Assembly: GCA_028683955.1 (NCBI GenBank)
Contig: JAQUGR010000004.1
Coordinates: 1-64,000 of the forward strand
Direction: 5' to 3'
DNA length: 64,000 nucleotides
From: Bacillota bacterium
GTDB taxonomy: Bacteria; Bacillota; TC1
A program made the translations under genes and the position numbers. The notes under the pieces are model-generated. The model was given only the letters and a program-made list of their open reading frames with translations. It searched no databases and had not been told where the DNA came from. How positions within the stretch are numbered: position 1 is the stretch's first letter; each line of letters begins with the position of its first letter. Of the stretch, positions 48,904 to 61,827 are shown one piece after another.

Positions 48904-50251
48904 TTTGTTTCTCCCATCTTTTCTTAATTCTTCTTAAACCATTTATAATAACTAAATAACTAATAATTCCTGTTAAACAATCAGCTAAAGGAAAACTTAT
49001 CCAAACACCCTTTAAACCAAAATAAAAAGAAAAGATTAACAAAAATGGTATAGTTAAGAATAATTGTCTTAATACTGCAAGAAATAAGGCTGTGATTGGA
49101 TTGTTAAATGATTGAAACGCCGAAGAGCCTACTAACTGAATCCCAACTAATGGCATCCCAACCATAACAAAGAACATTCCATATTTTGCCATTGCAACAA
49201 AACTATCATCTTTAGTAAATAAGTTAATTATTTGATTGTTAAATATCATAACCATTATAAAAGCAAATAGTGACATCATAAATGCTATAAGCATACCTTT
49301 ATTCAATATTTCTTTAACTCTTTTGAAATTTTTCATGCCATAGTTATAAGCTAATAAAGGTTGTAATCCATGGAGTAATCCAAAGATTGGTAAAAATAAA
49401 AATGTATTGATTTTTAAAATAATACCAATTGCATTTAAGGCTACTACCCCTCCATATGCTAGAAATAGATTATTGCATATAATTGCACCTACACTATTTA
49501 AAGCTTGTCTCATAAAAGCAGAAAAGCCCAATAAGTTCATCTTTTTATAATATAACCATTTAAACTTAACTTTCTTGAAATCTAATTCAAAAGGCAATTT
49601 TTTCACTTTATAATAATATAATGCTACTAAGAAAGCTAAAAACTGACCAAATGAATTAGCTAATCCAGCACCGAAAATTCCCATATCAAAAATTACAATA
49701 AAAATTGGTGTGAAAATAACATTGGTAATAATACTAGTTAACATTATACTAGAAGCTTTTTTTGCTTCACCTACAGTTCTTAACAAATTATTTGCCAAGA
49801 ATATAGTTGGAGCAAAAATCCACCCAATTAAAATCGCAAAATAATATATTTTAGTGTCAGCCAAAAGTACACCTTTACCCCCAACTAAACTAATTATAAA
49901 ATCTGAAAAAACTGTACCAAATAGAATAATCCCCAAAGTAAGAATTAAAGCAGAAATAATACCTGTAAAAGCAATATTGTCAATTACCCTGTGCCTTTTA
50001 CTGCCAAGCTTTACTGAAACCATAGCTGCTGTGCCCAAGGTTGCCATTGTTCCTAGTGCTACAAAAACCATTTCTATAGGCAAAGTTATAGCGGTTACTG
50101 CAAGTGCGTTGCCACCAATTAAATTCCCTAAATACATACCATTTACTATATTATTAGAAGCATTTACTAACATCGCTATAATAGACGGATATGAAAGCAT
50201 CATTATTAATTTATATATGTTTCCTTTACTAAAATCAATAGCAGTTTTCAT
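48896..50251 (-). CDS. MATE family efflux transporter
   Basis: A 451-residue transporter with 12 predicted helices in two halves of six, starting AIDFSKGNIYKLIMMLSYPSIIAML. Family motifs are VALGTMATLGTAAMVSVKLGSK and the second-half RQLFLTIPFLLIFSF. Members export cationic drugs or metabolites by Na+ or H+ antiport. It shares a base with the rmuC stop and overlaps the flippase gene, so the two MOP-superfamily genes are translated together. Confidence 0.88.
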   Translation of the reverse strand: MKTAIDFSKGNIYKLIMMLSYPSIIAMLVNASNNIVNGMYLGNLIGGNALAVTAITLPIEMVFVALGTMATLGTAAMVSVKLGSKRHRVIDNIAFTGIISALILTLGIILFGTVFSDFIISLVGGKGVLLADTKIYYFAILIGWIFAPTIFLANNLLRTVGEAKKASSIMLTSIITNVIFTPIFIVIFDMGIFGAGLANSFGQFLAFLVALYYYKVKKLPFELDFKKVKFKWLYYKKMNLLGFSAFMRQALNSVGAIICNNLFLAYGGVVALNAIGIILKINTFLFLPIFGLLHGLQPLLAYNYGMKNFKRVKEILNKGMLIAFMMSLFAFIMVMIFNNQIINLFTKDDSFVAMAKYGMFFVMVGMPLVGIQLVGSSAFQSFNNPITALFLAVLRQLFLTIPFLLIFSFYFGLKGVWISFPLADCLTGIISYLVIINGLRRIKKRWEKQIA

Positions 50252-51507
50252 TAATTCTTGCTCCTTAATTCTTTAGTAACTACTTCAATACTATTTAATT
50301 CACATATATCCTTATCACTTGATATACCTAATTCTTTAAATTTCCTTGTTGTAGGTAGAACTCTTGATTCAAAAGCTCCAACCGCTTTATTATATGAATC
50401 TACAGATTTATCAATCCCTTTTTTAATATTATCAAGATGTTCAGCTAGAACTGACATTCTATCGTATAACTCTTTTCCAAGACTACTTATAAGTTTAGCA
50501 TTAACTGCTAAAGTTTCTTGATTCCATCCATAGGCAATTGCTTTTAAAAGTGCAATTAATGTTGTTGGTGTAGCAATAATTACATTTTTACTAGCACCTA
50601 ATTCAATTAGTTGTGGTTCAGCTTCTAAAGCGGCACCATAAAGTGCTTCATTTGGTAAAAACAATACGACAAACTCAGGACTTTCTGGAAATTGATCCCA
50701 ATATGCTTTACTACTAAGTTTACCAATATGGTCTTTAACTTGTCTGCCGTGTTCTAATAAATATTTATGTTTATTAACTTCTTCTGTTGCTTCAATTAAA
50801 TTCAAATATGCATCTAATGGAGTCTTAGCATCAATGACTATAGTTTTATCACCAGGTAATTTAATTAACATATCTGGTCTTAATTTACCACAATCAGTGT
50901 CAGTTGATGCCTGTTCTACAAAATCAACATAATTTATCATTCCTGCCATTTCAACAACTCTCTTTAATTGTATTTCTCCCCATCTACCTCTAGTTTGTGG
51001 AGCTCTTAATGCTTTAACTAGATTAGCAGTTTCTAGTTGTAATTTTGTTTGATCTTCTTTTAAGAACTTAAATTGTTCTTTTACTTCAGTGAATGTTTTT
51101 TGATATTCTTTTTCAATAACATCCATCTTAACTTTAACTTCCCCTAAAATTTCTTTCATTGGATTAACTAAATTTTTAAAAGAATCTTCTTTTTTTTCAA
51201 GTTCATTTTTATTTTCTATACTGGTTTTTGCGAATTCAGATTTTGCTAAATCCAAAAAATTTTCTTGATTTTCTTTTAATAGTTTATATGAAATAGATCT
51301 GAAGGATTCAGTTAAAGCTTCTTCACTTTTTCTAAGGTGTTTTTCTTTTTCTTCAGCTAGTCGTCTTTCTCCATCAAGCAATATCTGTGATTTTTCTATT
51401 TCAGATTTTAAAAATCTATTTTTTTCATTTAATTTTCTTACTTTTAAAAGATATATAGTATAGCCACCTAATATTATTCCAAAAATGGCAAATAGTAATT
51501 CTTTCAT
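50251..51507 (-). CDS. rmuC: DNA recombination protein RmuC
   Basis: A 418-residue RmuC homologue: an N-terminal membrane anchor (MKELLFAIFGIILGGYTIYLL), a coiled coil (about 25-150), and a nuclease-like core with RGRWGEIQLKRVVEMAG, RPDMLIKLPGDKTIVIDAKTPLDAY and FVVLFLPNEALY, the D-x-D/E-A-K pattern of the restriction-endonuclease fold. RmuC limits DNA inversions and rearrangements. I chose the ATG behind GGAGG at 51505-51507, one base after the addA stop. It joins addB and addA in a repair cluster. Confidence 0.93.
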   Translation of the reverse strand: MKELLFAIFGIILGGYTIYLLKVRKLNEKNRFLKSEIEKSQILLDGERRLAEEKEKHLRKSEEALTESFRSISYKLLKENQENFLDLAKSEFAKTSIENKNELEKKEDSFKNLVNPMKEILGEVKVKMDVIEKEYQKTFTEVKEQFKFLKEDQTKLQLETANLVKALRAPQTRGRWGEIQLKRVVEMAGMINYVDFVEQASTDTDCGKLRPDMLIKLPGDKTIVIDAKTPLDAYLNLIEATEEVNKHKYLLEHGRQVKDHIGKLSSKAYWDQFPESPEFVVLFLPNEALYGAALEAEPQLIELGASKNVIIATPTTLIALLKAIAYGWNQETLAVNAKLISSLGKELYDRMSVLAEHLDNIKKGIDKSVDSYNKAVGAFESRVLPTTRKFKELGISSDKDICELNSIEVVTKELRSKN

Positions 51508-51508
51508 A

Positions 51509-54500
51509 TTATCCTCCAAAGTCAATTTTTATAAATTCTTTTATATTACTAAAATATAAGTATGCTTCAGCAACTTGAACACCTTTAATATTTTCTAGTG
51601 CCATTTTGTAAAGTTCTAATTGTTTTTTATATTCATCTAGTTTTATAGATATTTTTAATTTATCTACATGGTCGGTTTTATAATCTATCAAGATATATTT
51701 AGAATTTTCCATAAAATACAAATCAATTATACCTTGAACTAATATTTTATCCTCACCTACATAATCGTTACTTATTAGAGAAGGATTAACCATTAAATTA
51801 AATGGTTTCTCTTTTTCAAAATATAATGATTTAGTAATTCTATTAAATATATTGCTGTTGAAAAATCCGAAAATCCCTCCAATATCAATCGTTTCTAATT
51901 CTTTGTGTGAAATAACTCCGTTATCTATCAAAGACATAATTTCTTTATTTAAACTTTCAATAGAATTAATTTTATTGAAATTTACTAATTCCATAATGAG
52001 ATGGAAGAGTATACCTTTTTCAGCACTTGATACTTCATTATTTTGTAAAAAGTCAGGTTTGATTTTAAGACTACTTTTCAACAGGTCTCTTGTTAAAGCT
52101 TTTTCAATAGAATTAATTTTTAAAAAATCAGTAGCAGATAATTTTCTAGGTATTTGTACTAACAACCTATCCTTAAATTCTTCATCAACTAATTTATTAT
52201 CTATGTTTAATACTTTTTCAAGTTTATAACCATCATCGTTAATAATAACACTTTCTTTTAAAACTTCAAACTTACTTATGGCTGATTTTTCATTAAATAT
52301 TATAGGTAAGATAAGGTCATACATTGATTTAGCTTTTATTATACTATCAAAATTAAAGGATTTATATTTATCATACTTTTTGACAGAGCCTACAAGAAAT
52401 AAATTATTCTTAGCTCTGGTCATTGCTACATATAAGAGGTTTAGCTTATCTTCTAAGTTTTCATAACTTAACGCTTTATTTATTATTTCATAATTCAATG
52501 TTTTAATTTTATTTTTATCATTTGGAGTAAATATCTTTGTGCCTATTCCAAGTTTCTGGTGAAAATTAATCTGTTTAATCCCAGTATTTTTCCATACATC
52601 ACCAAGTTTAACAAGAAATACATTTTCATATTCCAATCCTTTACTTTTATGTATAGTTTGAATTTTTACAACATCATCTTCTTCTGAAGTCAAACTAGAA
52701 CTTGGTAAACTAATATCATTTTTTTCAATGTGTTTAAAGTATTTTAAAAATCCACTTAAATGGCTATTATTTGTTTTTTCAAAATCAGAAATAAGTCTTA
52801 ATAATTCTTTAATATTAAGACTTTCAATTTCATAATCGCTTTTTCTGAATAAAGTGAAATAATATTTTGATTCTAATAATAATAAAATAGTATAATCAGT
52901 TAAATTATGTTCATTTAATTTTATTTTTAGTTCAGCAATATTTTCAAGAAATGATTTAATTTTAATCTTGATTTCTGATAATCCTTCATCTAAACCTAAG
53001 TAATTATTTAATGAATTGATTAATAATTCACCTCTTTTTTTATATTTCCTGATAATTCCTAGTTCTTCTAACGTAAAATTGTATATCGGACTTTTTAAAA
53101 CATTTATCAACGCCAAATCATTATTGATATTGTTGATAATATCAAGATAATCTATAATAAAACCTACGCTTAAAGACTTTATAAAACCTGTATCAACTTC
53201 TCCATACAATGGAATTCCATATTTATCAAAAATTTCTTTAAATGGATCAACAATATATTTTACGGAATTTGCTAAAATCGTGAAATCTTTATATGAACAT
53301 TCATTATTATCAACCATATGACGTATTTTATTAGCACATATTTCAGCCTCTTTACGTACTTTATCTCTTAAGTGAGTATTTTCTAAACTCTCTTCATAAT
53401 CTTCTTCTTCATCCAAATATGTATCATCATTTAAATCTATTATATGTGTTTGAATTTTAATATCGTTTTTTAAATCTGATCCATGAACCAATTGTGCATC
53501 TTCTTTATATTTTACAGGTGAAATATACCCATCCATAAGGTGATTAAATAGACTATTTACACCATTAACTACACTATGACTAGATCTAAAATTTTTATTG
53601 AGGGTTAATGCTTCACTATTTAGCTCTTTTGTGTAAACATTTAGTTTACCTTGAAAGATACTTGAATCTGCTAATCTAAATCTATAAATACTCTGTTTTA
53701 AATCACCAACATAAAACATATTATTTTCTCTAGCAATAAGATTGAAAATCCGTTCTTGCACACCATTTGTATCTTGGTATTCATCAATACAAATATATTG
53801 ATAATATTGTCTATATATCTCATTATATTCTGCTCTCTCTAATAAATTTAATGCAAAATGTTCAATGTCATTATAATCAAAAAGATTTATTTTTCTTTTT
53901 TCTATTATAAGTTCCTTATTAAATCTTGATACTAAATCTATTAAATATAAATTATCCTCTTTAATAACTGCCTGTTCCTCTAACTTTGATTTCAAATCTA
54001 TTGTTAATTCTTTAATTTTATCTTTTATATTATTTCTTGTTTCCTTAAAATTAATATGTTCTTCTCTTTGATTATTTTTTTTCACAATAGAAAGTCTTTT
54101 AAAATTGATACTACAATTTAGAAAAGCTGATAGACCTTCTTTCTCTAATTTATATAACATAGTCTGCCATTGTTCTAAATCATCTTCATAAGTTTGAGTA
54201 TATTCATCTGCTCCAGCTGCAATATATACCCCTTCTAAATCAAAATAATTAGTAATATTCTTCGTCTCTCTACCAATAATTATATTTTTATAATATTGAC
54301 CTACAGGAGATTTTTCGAATTCCTCTACATTATCAATATAGGATGAGATGGACGACTGTAACCATTGGAATGGATCTGGGTTACTCTGGCTAAAATCATA
54401 TACATCTATAATTGATTTCCTTAATTCTTCATCACTTTCAAGTTTTCCATATGTTTCTACCAAATTTATAAAATGTGAATTTCTATGTTTATATTCTTCT

Positions 54501-54925
54501 TCAAATATTCTATCAAGTACTTCTGCTTTTAATTCTATATTTTTTTTATCATCAATTATTTGAAACTTTAAATCTAAATCAAATTCATTAAAATGATTTT
54601 TCAATACTTGTAAGCAAAACGAGTCAATTGTTTTAATATCTGATGCATCCAGAAGATTCCTCTGCTTTTTCAAGTTTAAATCCTCAGGGTTATTTTCTAT
54701 TTCATAATCAAGTTTTTTTTGCAATTTTTCTTTCATTTCAGATGCAGCTTTTCTTGTGAAAGTAATCATTAAAATATTACTTATATCAGTTTTACCTTCT
54801 TTAATAATTTGAAAAATGCGTTCAATAAGTACTGCAGTTTTTCCTGAACCTGCAGCAGCCGAAATTATTAAATTCTTGTTCCTAGTTTCAATTGCAAATT
54901 TTTGAGAATCAGTCCAGTTTTGCAT
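51509..54925 (-). CDS. addA: Helicase-nuclease subunit AddA
   Basis: UvrD-like helicase plus RecB-type nuclease of the AddAB double-strand-break repair complex. The 1138 residues have the Walker A SAAAGSGKTAVL (about 22-33), CIDEYQDTN, the late helicase motif LLYVAMTRAKNNL, and the PDDEXK nuclease GIIDLYFMENSKYILIDYKTD (split: D in GIID, then DYKTD) near the C-terminus. Its start overlaps the addB end by 17 bases. Length is slightly below the B. subtilis protein. Confidence 0.95.
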   Translation of the reverse strand: MQNWTDSQKFAIETRNKNLIISAAAGSGKTAVLIERIFQIIKEGKTDISNILMITFTRKAASEMKEKLQKKLDYEIENNPEDLNLKKQRNLLDASDIKTIDSFCLQVLKNHFNEFDLDLKFQIIDDKKNIELKAEVLDRIFEEEYKHRNSHFINLVETYGKLESDEELRKSIIDVYDFSQSNPDPFQWLQSSISSYIDNVEEFEKSPVGQYYKNIIIGRETKNITNYFDLEGVYIAAGADEYTQTYEDDLEQWQTMLYKLEKEGLSAFLNCSINFKRLSIVKKNNQREEHINFKETRNNIKDKIKELTIDLKSKLEEQAVIKEDNLYLIDLVSRFNKELIIEKRKINLFDYNDIEHFALNLLERAEYNEIYRQYYQYICIDEYQDTNGVQERIFNLIARENNMFYVGDLKQSIYRFRLADSSIFQGKLNVYTKELNSEALTLNKNFRSSHSVVNGVNSLFNHLMDGYISPVKYKEDAQLVHGSDLKNDIKIQTHIIDLNDDTYLDEEEDYEESLENTHLRDKVRKEAEICANKIRHMVDNNECSYKDFTILANSVKYIVDPFKEIFDKYGIPLYGEVDTGFIKSLSVGFIIDYLDIINNINNDLALINVLKSPIYNFTLEELGIIRKYKKRGELLINSLNNYLGLDEGLSEIKIKIKSFLENIAELKIKLNEHNLTDYTILLLLESKYYFTLFRKSDYEIESLNIKELLRLISDFEKTNNSHLSGFLKYFKHIEKNDISLPSSSLTSEEDDVVKIQTIHKSKGLEYENVFLVKLGDVWKNTGIKQINFHQKLGIGTKIFTPNDKNKIKTLNYEIINKALSYENLEDKLNLLYVAMTRAKNNLFLVGSVKKYDKYKSFNFDSIIKAKSMYDLILPIIFNEKSAISKFEVLKESVIINDDGYKLEKVLNIDNKLVDEEFKDRLLVQIPRKLSATDFLKINSIEKALTRDLLKSSLKIKPDFLQNNEVSSAEKGILFHLIMELVNFNKINSIESLNKEIMSLIDNGVISHKELETIDIGGIFGFFNSNIFNRITKSLYFEKEKPFNLMVNPSLISNDYVGEDKILVQGIIDLYFMENSKYILIDYKTDHVDKLKISIKLDEYKKQLELYKMALENIKGVQVAEAYLYFSNIKEFIKIDFGG

Positions 54926-57900
54926 ATTTCTTATTTAACTCCTCAATAAAGTTATTTTTCCCATATTTACCATTCTCTAAAACTCTATTTTTATTTTTAT
55001 TCTTACAAATTTTTAAATATTTACAGTATTTACACCCTTTTTCGTCATTCTTATAATAATAAGGGTTAACTTTAAAATTACCATTGATTATATTTTTAGC
55101 ATGATCTTTGATTTTATCTTCAGTAAATCTCTTTATCAAATCAAATTCCAAGTTGTTTATTATACTACTTTCTTTAAAATCATTTGGTAAAGAAAATTCC
55201 TGTTTTTCATCCTTTATAATTAGGCCAGTTAGTCTGTTTTTTTTGTACTCATCAATTAATTGGCTATATATTACTCCAGATGGTTGATACTTTTCACTTG
55301 ATAATGCATTAAGATAAACAAACAATTGGAACATAATTCCATCTCTAACTTTTCTATAATCGATTTTTTTTCCTCTAAGTTTATAATCAATAACTCTTAA
55401 ATAATCCTTATTTATTGTATTAAGTATATCCACCCTGTCTACTTTACCTATTAAAAATATACTTTCTTTAGAATCTAAAAATAGTCTATATTCAGGAAAT
55501 GTTTTTTCTGGACCAAATTCAACTTCATAATAACTGGGCTTAAATTCTGAATTAATAATATCATTTCTTAAAGTATCAACTAATTTAATGCCTTCTTCTT
55601 TAATTTTATTTAATCTATAAGTAAATTGATAATTATCAAATTTTAAAAAGTTATTTTCTAAGTACTCTTTTTCAAAATGTTCTTCAATAATATTTTTAGG
55701 ATTTTCTTTTTTTTCAAGATACCAATTCTTTTCACCAATTTTTTCTAGTACGTGGTGGTATATATTACCAATATCCATCGGCTTTAATTCATACTCTAAA
55801 TCTTCATTAGGATTAATACAGTATTTTATAAAAAAACTATAAGGACATTTTCCATACTCTTCTAATTTGCTGATAGTAAAGAAGGGTTCTTTACTATCAA
55901 ACAGAATTTTCTTGACTATATCACTATCTATTTCGCCCTCAATTGTTTCATTTTTATTATATTGATATAAAGTATTTAGGAAATCTCCAAAATTAGAAAA
56001 GATATTTTTATACATTTTTTCTGAAATCTTAATCTCTTTTTTATTTTCTAGTTTTAAAAAATTCAATAAACTAATATTTTTCGAATAAAAGTATGAATCA
56101 TCACTTAAAGCAGATTCTTGAGTTTTTGAAAGGTTAAAAACTTTTTTAATTACTCTTATTATATAAGCCGGTTTTAATCCTTCTCCTTTACTATCACTAA
56201 GACTATAGGTTATTATAAGATTTTTACTAGCCATAGATAAAGTAAAGTATAACTCCATATTCCTATTTAATTGTTTTGAAAGGTCATCTTTCTTCCAATT
56301 TAAAACCTTTTCTAAAATTATTGTTTCATCAAGAGGGAATAATGCCTCATGCGAAATTTTTTCTGGTAAATAACCTTCATTTGCACCTATTACAAAAACT
56401 ATTTTTGCAGATTCCTTAAAAGCATCTTGACTGTTTATTACCATAACTTCATTATTATTTACTGGAAGTATACTAATAAATTCTCTTTCTAGACTATTTT
56501 TAAATAATTGTAGTAATTCATTATTACTAATTGTATTTTCACCTAAGAAACTAACTAGTTGATCAAGTATTTCCAACAAGGTATTCCAAAACTGTGTATT
56601 AATATAAACATTCTTGAAATTTTCATTTTCTTTGTAAATTTCAATATTGGCAGAAAGTTTTTCATATATTTTAAAGTAAGAAATAATTTTATATATACTA
56701 ATTATCTTTTCTCTTACTGTTGTACCATTTACTGTTTCCCTAATAAATTTAATTATATTGTAAACTTTTTCTCTTATTGTCTCGATTTCAGGATTATCGC
56801 TAAAAACTTTAGTCCACTTATAATAATTAATGCCATTTTCATTAGCATATTTTTCTAATTTTTCGATTTCATCAATTTCGAAGTCCAAATAATTAGTTTT
56901 TAGTAATACTATTACATCCTCTGTTCTAATATCATCTAATAGTTGGATAATAGAAATTATAGCTCTTGCTATAGGATGATTGTGTATGTATAATTTTTCA
57001 TCAATAAATAATGGTACTTCATATAGTTTTCTATATAATTTAAAATAGTTCCTATAATCATCTATATTATTACATACTATTTTTATATCACGGTAACTAA
57101 TCCCTTGATCTGATAATCTAATTATACTTTCAAAAATGTTTTTTACTTCTTCATCTATATTATTAAAACTTAAAATGGTCAAATCCTTAGTACTTTCAGG
57201 ATATTTCACCATTTTATTATTGCTAATAATATTTTCTAAATGTTCTAGTTCTTTTGATTCAAAAAACTGATAATTTAATATTGTATTTTTAATATTAATA
57301 TTTTTCGCTTTAGTAAAATCATGTAAGTTTTTATATATATTTTGACCAAGTTGGTTAAATTCCGGATTATTAATATCAATATTGAGGCCTATAGTAAAAG
57401 TTTTAGCTGATATTATTAATTCTTTAATTATTTTCAATTGTTGATTTGAAAAGGTAAAAAAATCATCAATAAATACATGTGCTTTGTTAATACTATCTGA
57501 TGCACTAATAGCTTCAATTAATTTTAAATTAAAATTGATTTCATCAATATAACCGTCTTCTAAATATTCTTGATATTTATTGTTAATCATTTCTATCTCT
57601 TTTAATTTACTTTTTAAATCCTTATTTTCTATATTTTCATAATGATGAATAGGACTAAGGTCCACATCTCTCATATCACTTATTACTTTATTTATTTCTT
57701 CTAATGTACTTGCTTTAGCTTTTCTAAAGAATTTTAGTTCTGAATCAAGATCATTTATTGCCTTGTTAAGTATTAATAGTTGTCCTTGTTCATTTAAAAA
57801 TATTTTTGTTCTTAAATCTGAATTTTTAAGTAATAAATTTCCAAGTTTTTTAAAACTTATTACTTGAATATCTAATAACCCTTTATAATTTAAACTTGAA

Positions 57901-58046
57901 ATTAATTTATTTTCTGTTTCCAGGGTTATTTGTTCAGGTACTAAAAAATAGCATATCTCCTTTGAGTCAATATGCTTTTTTAATATTTTGCTCATATATA
58001 GGCTTTTGCCACTTTTTCTATTACCTAAAACAAATTCTACATTCAT
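54909..58046 (-). CDS. addB: Helicase-like nuclease subunit AddB
   Basis: Second subunit of AddAB. The 1045 residues have a Walker-A-like GNRKSGKSLYMSKIL at the N-terminus, the RecB nuclease motif KVDRVDIL with VIDYKLRGKK (about residue 890), and the Fe-S cysteines: KCPYSFFIKYC around residue 725 and GCKYCKYLKIC near the C-terminus. This four-cysteine clamp is known to stabilise the AddB nuclease domain. It is 10 bases behind the HTH-SLOG gene. Confidence 0.93.
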   Translation of the reverse strand: MNVEFVLGNRKSGKSLYMSKILKKHIDSKEICYFLVPEQITLETENKLISSLNYKGLLDIQVISFKKLGNLLLKNSDLRTKIFLNEQGQLLILNKAINDLDSELKFFRKAKASTLEEINKVISDMRDVDLSPIHHYENIENKDLKSKLKEIEMINNKYQEYLEDGYIDEINFNLKLIEAISASDSINKAHVFIDDFFTFSNQQLKIIKELIISAKTFTIGLNIDINNPEFNQLGQNIYKNLHDFTKAKNINIKNTILNYQFFESKELEHLENIISNNKMVKYPESTKDLTILSFNNIDEEVKNIFESIIRLSDQGISYRDIKIVCNNIDDYRNYFKLYRKLYEVPLFIDEKLYIHNHPIARAIISIIQLLDDIRTEDVIVLLKTNYLDFEIDEIEKLEKYANENGINYYKWTKVFSDNPEIETIREKVYNIIKFIRETVNGTTVREKIISIYKIISYFKIYEKLSANIEIYKENENFKNVYINTQFWNTLLEILDQLVSFLGENTISNNELLQLFKNSLEREFISILPVNNNEVMVINSQDAFKESAKIVFVIGANEGYLPEKISHEALFPLDETIILEKVLNWKKDDLSKQLNRNMELYFTLSMASKNLIITYSLSDSKGEGLKPAYIIRVIKKVFNLSKTQESALSDDSYFYSKNISLLNFLKLENKKEIKISEKMYKNIFSNFGDFLNTLYQYNKNETIEGEIDSDIVKKILFDSKEPFFTISKLEEYGKCPYSFFIKYCINPNEDLEYELKPMDIGNIYHHVLEKIGEKNWYLEKKENPKNIIEEHFEKEYLENNFLKFDNYQFTYRLNKIKEEGIKLVDTLRNDIINSEFKPSYYEVEFGPEKTFPEYRLFLDSKESIFLIGKVDRVDILNTINKDYLRVIDYKLRGKKIDYRKVRDGIMFQLFVYLNALSSEKYQPSGVIYSQLIDEYKKNRLTGLIIKDEKQEFSLPNDFKESSIINNLEFDLIKRFTEDKIKDHAKNIINGNFKVNPYYYKNDEKGCKYCKYLKICKNKNKNRVLENGKYGKNNFIEELNKKYAKLD

Positions 58047-58056
58047 CTAAAACCTA

Positions 58057-59184
58057 CTAACTTAAGACAATTTTTATTTGTCTTATAAAATCATCATAGT
58101 CTCTATATAAAATAATGCCTTTCTTATTAATATATTTCTCTAACCACTTATTATTAGAGTCAATTTTATAAGGATAAGGCATAAAAATTACTCTCCCTTG
58201 TTTTAATGAATATTCTATCTGCTTATAATTGCCTTCTTGATATTTCTTATCTACCACAACAGTAAATTGAGATATTCCACTTAAAGTAATAGCTCTTATA
58301 GGAAACTGCCATCTTTTTCCTGGTGATGAAGGACAGTATTGGGATATAACCAGACCATCTCTGGCCATATCTTTTTGTAATTGTTCATTTTCTTTTGGAT
58401 AAGCCTTATTAAGCGGTGTTCCGAGTACACCAATAGATGGCATTCTATTATTAACAACTGTATTTAAAACAACTGTATCAATTCCTTTAGCCAGGCCTGA
58501 TGCTATTATATATCCCTTTTCCGCTAAAAATTTTGTTATTTTATATGCTAAATCTTGTTCTTCAAATATTGGTTCTTTAGAACCTATAATTGAAACTATT
58601 GGTTTATTTAACAACTCTCTGTGCCCTCTTAAAAAGAGGAAAGGAGGAGGTCCTTCTATGCGTTTTAACTCAAAAGGATAATATTCATCATTAATGCCAA
58701 TAATATGATCAGTTGCTAAAAGCTTTTCAAATCCCCTTAAAACACTTTCATATCGAGATAAGAACTCCTCGTTAGTAACACCTAAATATCCAGCAACCAA
58801 ATCCATCTTATAAAATAAAGGCTTGTTAAAATCAACTTTTTCCTTTAATTCATTATAAGCTGGAGCTGTTTTTTTATAAGCATAATTAAAATAGCTTTGT
58901 ATGGCGAAATAATTTATAGCTTCCTGAATTGAATCCTTATTGTTTTTTAACAATTCAACATTTCTAGGTGCTTGTATTTCTTTGCCTATACTATTACCAC
59001 TATAACGTCTTTCTTCTAAATCTCTTTTCAAAAATAGTGTTCCTGATGGGTTCATTTTAACAGGAATAATGTCACCTTTGTGCACTAACTTATTAAGCCT
59101 TTGTACACTAATTCCTAGAAATTCTGCAGCTTCTTTTGCAAACATTATTTCTTCGGCAATTATACTTTTTAATTTATCATCCAT
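58057..59184 (-). CDS. DprA/SLOG-like protein with N-terminal helix-turn-helix
   Basis: A 375-residue protein. Residues 10-60 form a MerR/excisionase-like helix-turn-helix (FAKEAAEFLGISVQRLNKLVHKGD, then LFLKRDLEERR). Residues about 165-340 are a DprA-type Rossmann domain: YPFELKRIEGPPPFLFLRG, IIGSKEP, ASGLAKGID (228-236), GVLGTPLNKAYPKEN. The single-strand-DNA residues of genuine DprA are altered: FPxRNR is FPIRAI and SGSLxTA is EGNYKQI. The C-terminal winged helix of DprA is absent. So it is not a standard competence DprA; a DNA- or nucleotide-sensing role is possible. I chose the ATG behind GGAGG. It leads the addB-addA-rmuC unit with its own promoter. Confidence 0.75.
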   Translation of the reverse strand: MDDKLKSIIAEEIMFAKEAAEFLGISVQRLNKLVHKGDIIPVKMNPSGTLFLKRDLEERRYSGNSIGKEIQAPRNVELLKNNKDSIQEAINYFAIQSYFNYAYKKTAPAYNELKEKVDFNKPLFYKMDLVAGYLGVTNEEFLSRYESVLRGFEKLLATDHIIGINDEYYPFELKRIEGPPPFLFLRGHRELLNKPIVSIIGSKEPIFEEQDLAYKITKFLAEKGYIIASGLAKGIDTVVLNTVVNNRMPSIGVLGTPLNKAYPKENEQLQKDMARDGLVISQYCPSSPGKRWQFPIRAITLSGISQFTVVVDKKYQEGNYKQIEYSLKQGRVIFMPYPYKIDSNNKWLEKYINKKGIILYRDYDDFIRQIKIVLS

Positions 59185-59212: not shown

Positions 59213-59241
59213 ATTTTATATCAATGGTTTAAAAACTTCAA
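59213..59241 (-). promoter_or_regulatory. Promoter of the HTH-SLOG/addBA unit
   Basis: On the minus strand, TTGAAG (59236-59241) and TAAAAT (59213-59218) are 17 bases apart, in the short gap behind smpB. Confidence 0.55.
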
Positions 59242-59249
59242 TAACTTGA

Positions 59250-59708
59250 TTACATACTATGTCTATTATCTTTCATTGCTCTCTCAATTTGTCTTTGAGC
59301 TTCTTTTTTTGCTAATGTATCTCTTTTATCATAAAGTTTTTTACCTTTAACTAATGCGATTTCAACTTTAACTTTACCATTATCATTTATATAAAAAGAT
59401 ATTGGCACTAAAGTTAAGCCTTCTTCTTTTATTTTACCTATTAGTCTCATGATTTCCTTTTTATGCATTAAGATTTTTCTACTTCTTAATGGATCATGAT
59501 TATGTATATTGCCTTCTTCAAAGGGACTGATATGTACTCCATCAAGAAATAGTTCACCGTTTCTAATAGTACCAAAGCTATCTTTTAGATTTAATCTTCT
59601 TTTCCTAAGAGACTTCATTTCAGTTCCTGTTAGTACAATTCCTGCTTCAAATTTTTCAATAATAAAATAATCATGATAAGCTTTTCTATTTTCAGCGAGT
59701 TTAATCAA
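59250..59708 (-). CDS. smpB: SsrA-binding protein SmpB
   Basis: Binds tmRNA and delivers it to stalled ribosomes for trans-translation. The protein of about 152 residues reads [20 protein letters not shown], then [18 protein letters not shown], and ends in a basic tail with [14 protein letters not shown] favour the TTG at 59706-59708, eight bases after AGGAAGG; a GTG at 59717 would have its site too close. Either start overlaps the rnr end. The ssrA gene is not in the short space that follows. Confidence 0.94.
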
Positions 59709-61827
59709 CAGTATCACCTTCCTCTAGATTGAAGTCTAAATGACCTAATAATATATCAGCTTTTACAAGTTTAACCTGTATTTGATCACCTATTTTAAAC
59801 CTAACTTTATTACCACCATCTCTAACAACCATTTCCTTTTCGAAAAATGTATGATAACCCTTTAATGAATTAAATGGTAAAAATCCTTCAGTTAAATTTT
59901 CCAACTCAATAAAAAGACCACTATTTATCATACCTGATACTTTACCTTTAAATATTTCTCCCACAAAGGACTTCATATACTCAACGCTTTTAATTTTATC
60001 AACTTCTCTTTCAGCACTTTCAGCTATTATTTCTCTTTCACTTGACTGGACTGCTGACTGATAAGCTTTTAAATTAATTTTTGATTTTTCATTTTCACTA
60101 GGTAAATTATCTTTCATGTATCTTTTTAAAATTCTATGAACTTCTAGGTCTGGATATCTTCTAATTGGTGAAGTAAAATGACAATAATATACAACCCAAA
60201 GTCCAAAGTGACCTATTGGTTTAATATCATACCTTGCATGACTCATAGATCTTAAAAGTAAATTCATTAACATATCTTTCATAGGATGATTTTCTAGTTT
60301 TTCAATTACTTCCTGGTACTGTTTTGAATATATTTTCCCATTACTATCTAGTTTTAATTTAAAGCCAAATGGGGCAGCAACTGTATTAAAATTATTAATG
60401 CCTTCAAGTGGCGGTTCTTCATGAACTCTATAAATACATGGTGCAGTTAACCAAAATAAATGTTCTGCAACTGTCTCATTTGCTAGTAGCATAAATTCTT
60501 CAATAATCGATTCAGCTTGATTTCTAACTCTTTTAGCTAATTCTATCGCTTTCCCCTTTTCATCTACAAAAATTTTTAATTCTGGGAAATCAAAGAATAT
60601 CGCTCCTCTGCTAGCTCTCATTTTTGTTAATATATCTGCCAAATCAGCCATTAAATCGAAGAAGGAAAATAAATCAGAGTATTCTTTAATTTCTTCAATA
60701 TTAGTATCAGCTTGATTTCGCTTAAGAATCTTAGTTACTTTGGTATAGGTCATCCTACTATTAACTTTTATTACAGAAGGAAAAATTTCGTAACTTACAA
60801 CTTTGCCTTTTCCATCAATTTCCATCATTGCTGTCATTGCTAATCTATCTTTATCTTGTTGTAAACTGCATATGCCATTAGATAAATCAACCGGTAACAT
60901 TGGCAGTACCCTATCTGGGAAGTATATGCTTGTAGCTCGTTTATAGGCTTCCTGGTCTATTGTATCTTTAACACTCACATAATGGCTTACATCAGCAATA
61001 TGAACTCCTAACCTATAACCTGATTCTGTTTTTTCAATAGATACCGCATCATCAAAATCTCTTGCATCTTCTCCATCAATAGTTACCATTAACAAGTCTC
61101 TTAAATCTCGTCTTGATGTAATTTCATCACTACTTACTTCATGTGCTGCATTAGTAGCTGCTTCCAAAACTTCTTTTGGGAATTCCTTTGGAAGATTGTA
61201 TTTTATCATTACTTCTTCAATTGCCATGTCTGCTTCATCTAAATCACTTGCAAAACCAATGATATCAACTAGTCCAAAGTTATTATTATCAGGATAACTA
61301 ACTATTTTACAAAAAACTCTTGCACCTTTAGATAGTTCAACGCTTTGGGCTCTATACTTACCAAATATTTTATTATCTATTGGAATTATAGTTATTTCCC
61401 CTTTATAAAATGTTGCTTCACCCACAAAACTCTTAGTGCCTCTACTAATTATTCTTTCCACTTTAGCTTCTTTATTTTTACCACCTGTTTTTGCAACTAA
61501 CTTAGCTAAAACAATATCATTATTTTGAGCATCTTTAAGACTATTATGAGGTATGAAAAATTCTGCTTTGGTTGCAGTTTCTTGAAAAAACCCAAAACCT
61601 TTTTCATTAGTACTAATTTTTCCTAGCATAATGCCTTTATCTTTTATTGATATAAATCTACCTTTCTTAGTAGTGTAAACTAACCCAGATGCAATTAATG
61701 ATTCTAAGACTGTTTCAAATATAGGTTTATCTTCATTTGAGATATCCCATTTATCTACCATTTCAGCAAAATTCATAGGCTTATAATCACTACTATTTAT
61801 TTTTTCTAATATATATTCTTTATCCAT
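59701..61827 (-). CDS. rnr: Ribonuclease R
   Basis: Processive 3'-to-5' exoribonuclease that unwinds structured RNA and takes part in trans-translation decay. The 708 residues have N-terminal OB/CSD domains, the RNB catalytic segment [19 protein letters not shown] with its aspartate cluster, [16 protein letters not shown], and a C-terminal S1 domain (about 625-700). It overlaps smpB, its functional partner. AAAAAGGAG follows directly on the terminator U tract after secG. Confidence 0.96.

What the first reader, a model, noticed from the sequence alone, without database searches (positions are those of the whole stretch)
58057..59184. HTH-SLOG protein, not a true DprA, leading the addB-addA-rmuC unit
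The DprA Rossmann core is kept (SGLAKGID) but the DNA-contact motifs are changed (FPIRAI, EGNYKQI), the DprA C-terminal domain is missing and an excisionase-like HTH is added. SLOG domains are known to sense nucleotide-type ligands in conflict systems. Its place before the break-repair nuclease raises the possibility of a damage or phage sensor linked to AddAB.
Basis: partly seen in the sequence, partly recalled or inferred. Interest (0 to 1): 0.6.

Follow-up and report, generated by a model that had tools for sequence, protein, structure and literature searches.

The report
Orphaned phage DprA-type protein beside AddAB
A DNA-binding protein that phages normally carry paired with a phosphoribosyltransferase (a suspected toxin) appears to have been kept by a small bacterial lineage without its partner, placed directly in front of the genes of the AddAB DNA-break repair machine, and conserved as strictly as a housekeeping gene.

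Summary
Window 58057-59184 (minus strand, 375 aa) encodes excisionase-type HTH + helical linker + DprA/SLOG core. It opens the addB-addA-rmuC unit, behind rnr-smpB, in the family's genomes. It is not the genome's DprA: a syntenic dprA lies 42 kb away, and trees reject joining the two. Its true kin are HTH-DprA proteins of mobile elements (PHROG 38708, function unknown), e.g. gp32 of temperate Geobacillus phage phiOH2, mostly followed by a phosphoribosyltransferase-zinc-ribbon gene: a DprA-PRTase module, a kind known as a toxin-antitoxin/anti-phage system. The window's family has the DprA half only; no PRTase partner was found. After one long branch (R203K, H240L, N298A/G, S317E at invariant DprA sites) it froze: pN/pS 0.05-0.11, like smpB, against 0.22-0.37 for addB and dprA. 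In one relative dprA and comEC are both broken while this gene is intact, so it does not serve transformation. Best reading: a domesticated, orphaned phage antitoxin-type DprA serving AddAB-linked recombination, as DNA-binding partner and/or regulator. Origin well supported; mechanism inferred. The phage-sensor idea is unsupported here.

The parts
58057..59184 (-). HTH-DprA(SLOG) protein, 375 aa
   Evidence: whole length matches PHROG 38708, residues 3-366, E 4e-79
59011..59136 (-). HTH_17 / excisionase-type helix-turn-helix (residues 17-58); most conserved domain (78% between genera against 60% for the core)
58711..58947 (-). helical middle domain (residues 80-158), the signature used to find close relatives; modelled as helices at pLDDT above 90
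58123..58707 (-). DprA/SLOG Rossmann core (residues 160-354); model matches DprA 3uqz (Z 27.6), H. pylori DprA 4ljk (27.2) and ShosA 8zva (26.2)
59213..59241 (-). candidate promoter TTGAAG-17-TAAAAT in the smpB-HTHdprA gap; same layout in relatives of both genera, but single matches of this strength are at chance level in the region
54909..58046 (-). addB, starting 10 bp after the HTH-dprA gene
51509..54925 (-). addA, overlapping the end of addB
50251..51525 (-). rmuC
59250..59717 (-). smpB, upstream neighbour
59701..61827 (-). rnr (RNase R), upstream of smpB (named from sequence)

Best explanation
The gene is the orphaned, domesticated DprA half of a mobile HTH-DprA + phosphoribosyltransferase module. 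Shown by computation: its nearest relatives are phage/prophage and scattered chromosomal HTH-DprA proteins, most followed by a PRTase-zinc-ribbon gene; no PRTase partner was found in this family; the DprA half is fixed between smpB and addB, remodelled around the DprA pocket, then frozen under very strong purifying selection; it is not tied to transformation. Inferred: in the ancestral module the HTH bound the module's own promoter and the DprA part bound DNA and countered the PRTase toxin, as described for ShosA, which is reported to bind DNA and promote homologous recombination. In this lineage that DNA-binding, recombination-promoting half was kept and placed under common expression with AddAB-RmuC, where it most likely acts as a DNA-binding accessory factor of AddAB/RecA break repair and, through its conserved HTH, may also tune expression of the unit.
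For: Tree: the family's proteins fall inside the DprA-PRTase clade (100/99), within the HTH-bearing module group (98/94); AU test rejects joining them to canonical DprA (p 0.0002) and to the family's own dprA (p 0.003). Phage phiOH2 gp32-gp31, provirus L107 and G081 carry HTH-DprA directly followed by PRTase-zinc ribbon. No counterpart of that PRTase in G000 and only weak partial hits in 4 of the 10 genomes of the class. pN/pS 0.046-0.11 in the genus against smpB 0.064-0.13, dprA 0.27-0.37, addB 0.22-0.35. Position between smpB and addB is the same in both genera, though addB itself has fallen to 38% identity. Basic ssDNA positions kept in the genus. comEC and canonical dprA broken in G001 with this gene intact. 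ShosA reported to bind DNA and promote recombination (PMC12593503).
Against: No direct evidence of any interaction with AddAB, RecA or DNA. R203K and the changed S317/N298 could mean loss of ssDNA binding. Shared operon position may be historical. Strict ShosA proteins (E. coli, PfAC02a) do not group with this clade, so transfer of ShosA biochemistry is by analogy. G001 is a decaying genome, so one intact gene there says little by itself (60 of 70 orthologues intact).
Confidence: 0.5

Rival explanations
1. Transcription regulator: the HTH binds the promoter in the smpB-addB gap, the SLOG core has become a ligand or dimerisation module, and the protein sets the level of addB-addA-rmuC (autoregulation inherited from the phage module).
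For: HTH is the most conserved domain; all three HTH-bearing modules carry a TTGAT-N4-ATCAA-like dyad 54-61 bp upstream of the start (two exact, one with 2 mismatches), the HTH-less relatives do not; candidate promoter in the gap; Gordonia phage Vasanti carries an annotated HTH gene just before its dprA-PRTase pair.
Against: The dyad is not at the family's own promoter (3 of 10 positions wrong, chance level), and of the exact dyads sampled in the family's genomes all but one lie inside genes. The motif was found after looking, and the 2-mismatch case is not significant alone.
Confidence: 0.28
2. SLOG-type sensor of a nucleotide-like or damage signal linked to AddAB defence.
For: SLOG fold, with Thoeris ThsA SLOG among lower structural matches; conflict-system ancestry.
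Against: No effector partner found, slow evolution; the SGS motif of the DprA pocket is lost.
Confidence: 0.1
3. Solitary antidote: a kept antitoxin that protects the host from PRTase toxins of incoming prophages or plasmids.
For: Ancestral partner is a PRTase; such modules are carried by phages and plasmids.
Against: The pocket is remodelled, and an antidote to diverse toxins would not be expected to be nearly frozen or tied to addAB.
Confidence: 0.07
4. It is simply a divergent DprA serving natural transformation.
For: DprA core; fold as DprA.
Against: Separate syntenic dprA; tree; score below the DprA equivalog cut-off, 125 against 191 bits; comEC and dprA lost together in G001 while this stays.
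Confidence: 0.03

Closest known systems
PHROG 38708 (HTH-DprA of temperate phages; Geobacillus phage phiOH2 gp32), function unknown
   Same: Full-length architecture (HTH, helical middle, DprA core), 38% identity over 97% of the length
   Different: Phage genes are followed by a PRTase gene (gp31) and keep the DprA signature residues; the window gene stands alone before addB and has lost R203, H240, N298, S317
DprA-PRTase anti-phage / toxin-antitoxin systems (P2-hotspot DprA-PRTase of PMC9122126; ShosTA; RqlHI/PsyrTA)
   Same: DprA-like component; same deep clade as phage Mana, Gordonia phage and plasmid DprA-PRTase pairs
   Different: No PRTase; E. coli ShosA and PfAC02a ShosA lie outside this clade; extreme conservation; fixed core-genome position
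Canonical DprA (Smf), the RecA loader of transformation
   Same: Rossmann core, overall fold, most basic ssDNA positions
   Different: HTH instead of SAM domain, several invariant residues changed, separate clade, independent of competence genes
AddAB (RexAB) operon
   Same: Transcribed in the same direction, 10 bp before addB
   Different: I know of no DprA-like or HTH-SLOG gene as a member of this operon elsewhere (own knowledge; the relatives searched here show none)

Membership tests
Canonical DprA | PF02481 core and DprA fold | tested here: met
Canonical DprA | Score above the NCBIfam dprA equivalog cut-off (TIGR00732) | tested here: not met
   125.1 against 191.15 bits
Canonical DprA | Invariant residues GxR arginine, RN asparagine, SGS serine, GID..H histidine | tested here: not met
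   K203, A/G298, E317, L/M240 in all five sequences
Canonical DprA | Groups with canonical DprA in a tree | tested here: not met
   AU p = 0.0002
Canonical DprA | ssDNA binding and RecA loading in transformation | not testable with these tools
   indirect only: unlinked to comEC/dprA decay in G001
DprA-PRTase module (ShosTA-like) | Groups with DprA of DprA-PRTase pairs | tested here: met
   100/97 and 100/99 support
DprA-PRTase module (ShosTA-like) | PRTase gene adjacent or in the genome | tested here: not met
   addB follows after 10 bp; no match in G000
DprA-PRTase module (ShosTA-like) | Toxin neutralisation / anti-phage activity | not testable with these tools
   -
ShosA in the strict sense | Groups with E. 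coli or PfAC02a ShosA | tested here: inconclusive
   both lie elsewhere, but 9vzo has a very long branch; PADLOC ShosA models match every DprA tried, so they do not decide
HTH-DprA, PHROG 38708 | Full-length profile match including the HTH | tested here: met
   residues 3-366, E 4e-79
SLOG ligand sensors (e.g. ThsA) | Nucleotide-ligand binding | not testable with these tools
   fold similarity only, Z 11

The most novel reading that the evidence does not exclude
A phage antitoxin-type HTH-DprA lost its toxin, changed its pocket, and became a core component or dedicated regulator of AddAB-dependent break repair in a small lineage of uncultured Bacillota: a direct evolutionary bridge from a phage toxin-antitoxin/defence module to host recombination machinery.
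Probability: 0.4. Interest if true: 0.75.

Novelty: new variant of a known kind. Interest (0 to 1): 0.55.

Why it matters
DprA-like proteins of phage DprA-PRTase systems have been proposed to act through DNA binding and recombination, but how is open. An orphan that survives only as a partner of the AddAB operon, with a defined set of lineage-specific changes and housekeeping-level constraint, is a natural experiment that separates the DprA function from toxin control, and it would show a defence antitoxin turned into a repair factor. It also warns that 'DprA' annotation next to addAB is not evidence of competence.

Tried and rejected
(1) PADLOC ShosA hits as proof of ShosTA: rejected, the models match every DprA tried, canonical ones included. 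(2) Shared operator motif in the window's family: the module dyad TTGATN4ATCAA is not at its promoter; of the 31 regions fetched around exact dyads in family genomes, only one has the dyad between genes. The single window hit, 55626-55639 inside addB, is as expected by chance. (3) Rfam scan of the window: nothing. (4) Searching genome contigs with the single protein gave only three genus members, already known as G-handles. (5) Whether G001's broken dprA/comEC are sequencing noise: 10 of 70 orthologues are broken, including his, pur and met biosynthesis genes, which fits gene decay better than random error, but assembly error is not fully excluded. (6) Phylum-wide search with the middle-domain profile (398 genomes): outside the family only G016 and G146 carried strong matches (G081, found earlier, fell below the completeness filter), so relatives are rare and scattered. 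(8) The recent primary ShosTA paper was not found in the library; its content is taken from a review.

Full report
Observation. The gene at 58057-59184 is real, on the minus strand, 375 aa from the ATG at 59184. It consists of an HTH_17 domain (17-58), a helical middle part (80-158) and a DprA core (160-354). Direction and spacing make it the first gene of HTHdprA-addB-addA-rmuC (10 bp to addB; addB-addA overlap), behind rnr-smpB with a 65-bp gap. The quoted motifs are present. The missing C-terminal domain is true but not special, since the genome's canonical DprA lacks it too.

A genuine dprA exists. The genome (1.59 Mb, 15 contigs) holds two PF02481 genes; the other, at C5:101.5 kb, lies beside ychF, and in relatives dprA lies between ychF and topA. 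It keeps GSR, FPRRNR and SGSLIT.

Conservation. All six genomes of the family have the HTH-dprA gene; it lies between smpB and addB in all where the contig allows it to be seen (in G003 the gene is split over two contig ends, one joined to smpB and the other to addB). The sister family f2 keeps rnr-smpB but with other genes behind it and no HTH-dprA there. Identity to the window protein is 95, 92, 89, 75 (partial) and 58%, against 76, 64, 71, 44 (partial) and 38% (partial) for addB. Within the genus pN/pS is 0.046-0.11 for HTH-dprA, 0.064-0.13 for smpB, 0.22-0.35 for addB and 0.27-0.37 for canonical dprA (synonymous sites are near saturation and the more distant G003 is left out, so read this as a ranking). 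The HTH is the best conserved domain between the two genera: 78%, core 60%, middle 46%.

Independence from transformation. In G001, the other genus, canonical dprA is broken by several frameshifts and comEC is in pieces with four stops, while HTH-dprA, addB and addA are intact. A control over 400 kb each of G001 and G002 found 60 orthologues intact and 10 broken, so the genome is decaying; loss of both competence genes is expected under loss of transformation, and the HTH-dprA gene did not follow.

Relatives. Sequence searches found a small set of distant relatives: G081 (41%), Geobacillus phage phiOH2 (38%) and a provirus L107 (38%), all full length with the HTH, and G016 and G146 without it. 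The full length matches PHROG 38708, unknown function, and the HTH matches a phage excisionase family. In G081, G146, phiOH2 and L107 the next gene encodes a PRTase with a C4 zinc ribbon and an N-terminal part that aligns to the HAD domain of plasmid homologues. phiOH2 carries the pair between its ArpU activator and terminase genes. Plasmids and phages carry further DprA + PRTase or DprA + HAD-PRTase pairs. Such pairs are described as toxin-antitoxin and anti-phage systems (PMC9122126, PMC11878078, PMC4670107).

Tree. On 181 core columns the family's proteins sit inside the DprA-PRTase clade (100/97; 100/99 when long branches are removed and more phage pairs are added) and inside the group of HTH-bearing modules (98/94), apart from canonical DprA; joining them to canonical DprA is rejected (p 0.0002), joining them to the family's own dprA is rejected (p 0.003); whether they nest within or beside the modules is not settled (p 0.19). 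E. coli ShosA and PfAC02a ShosA lie elsewhere, so 'ShosTA' is an analogy here, not a membership. Since the outgroups in the clade also have PRTase, loss of the partner is the simplest history. The PRTase of G081 has no counterpart in G000 and only weak partial hits in 4 of 10 genomes of the class.

Remodelling. The stem of the family is long (about 1.0 changes per site) and the crown short. At positions invariant in all 27 canonical and 8 module sequences, the family has R203K, H240L/M, N298A/G, A313K/V and S317E; G209E and L320Y are at nearly invariant positions. Yet the three residues reported as crucial for ssDNA binding in H. pylori DprA map to K203, R291 and R297, so a DNA-binding surface is plausible. 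The predicted structure (pLDDT 84, pTM 0.76; HTH part low, 40-73) matches DprA and ShosA over residues 80-375.

Regulation. All three HTH-bearing modules have a TTGAT-N4-ATCAA-like dyad 54-61 bp before the start (two exact, one with two mismatches); the two HTH-less ones do not. This suggests that the HTH is the module's autoregulator. The family's own gap has a promoter-like TTGAAG-17-TAAAAT in relatives of both genera (not above chance as a single match) but no such dyad, and dyads elsewhere in the family's genomes are almost all inside genes.

Mechanism. Shown: ancestry, orphan state, fixation before addB, strong constraint, independence from competence. Inferred: the protein contributes DNA binding to AddAB/RecA repair and may adjust the unit's expression. 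A review reports that ShosA binds DNA and likely promotes homologous recombination against its toxin's DNA damage (PMC12593503); keeping that half next to AddAB fits. The sensor idea lacks an effector and a defence-like evolutionary rate.

Verdict. A new variant of a known kind: a domesticated orphan of a phage DprA-PRTase module inside the AddAB unit of a small, uncultured Bacillota lineage (record titles of near relatives).

Noticed in passing
L060:8370-9338 (genome G005): A third DprA-like gene in one relative lies in a defence island with type I restriction genes and, further on, a large ATPase with a PHP-like N-terminus; a DprA + HAD-PRTase pair also lies beside a TrlF ATPase on a Sinorhizobium plasmid (L070).
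   Followed up: partly
L062:7157-8245 (genome G008) and L025-L027: The sister family f2 carries a very divergent second DprA-like protein (IGMHEP instead of GSR) near recA-recX; it forms a separate, long-branched clade.
   Followed up: partly
L014/L059, L199 (genome G001): G001 shows widespread gene decay: purH, hisD, hisF, metA, trmFO, comEC and dprA look broken (about 14% of tested orthologues; names from sequence).
   Followed up: partly
L301:1446-3433 (Gordonia phage Vasanti): Genes 31-30-29 are annotated HTH, DprA-like and phosphoribosyltransferase: an unfused form of the HTH-DprA-PRTase layout (the HTH gene has no Pfam hit).
   Followed up: partly
L055:7830-7925 (upstream of the HTH-dprA gene of G081): A perfect 13-bp inverted repeat (CATAACACTTGAT-4-ATCAAGTGTTATG) precedes the HTH-dprA gene of G081, a likely operator.
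   Followed up: partly
L070, L071, L072 (plasmids): 'HAD-IA family hydrolase' annotations next to dprA are HAD-PRTase-zinc-ribbon proteins, probably an under-annotated toxin type; PfAC02a ShosT has the same layout.
   Followed up: partly
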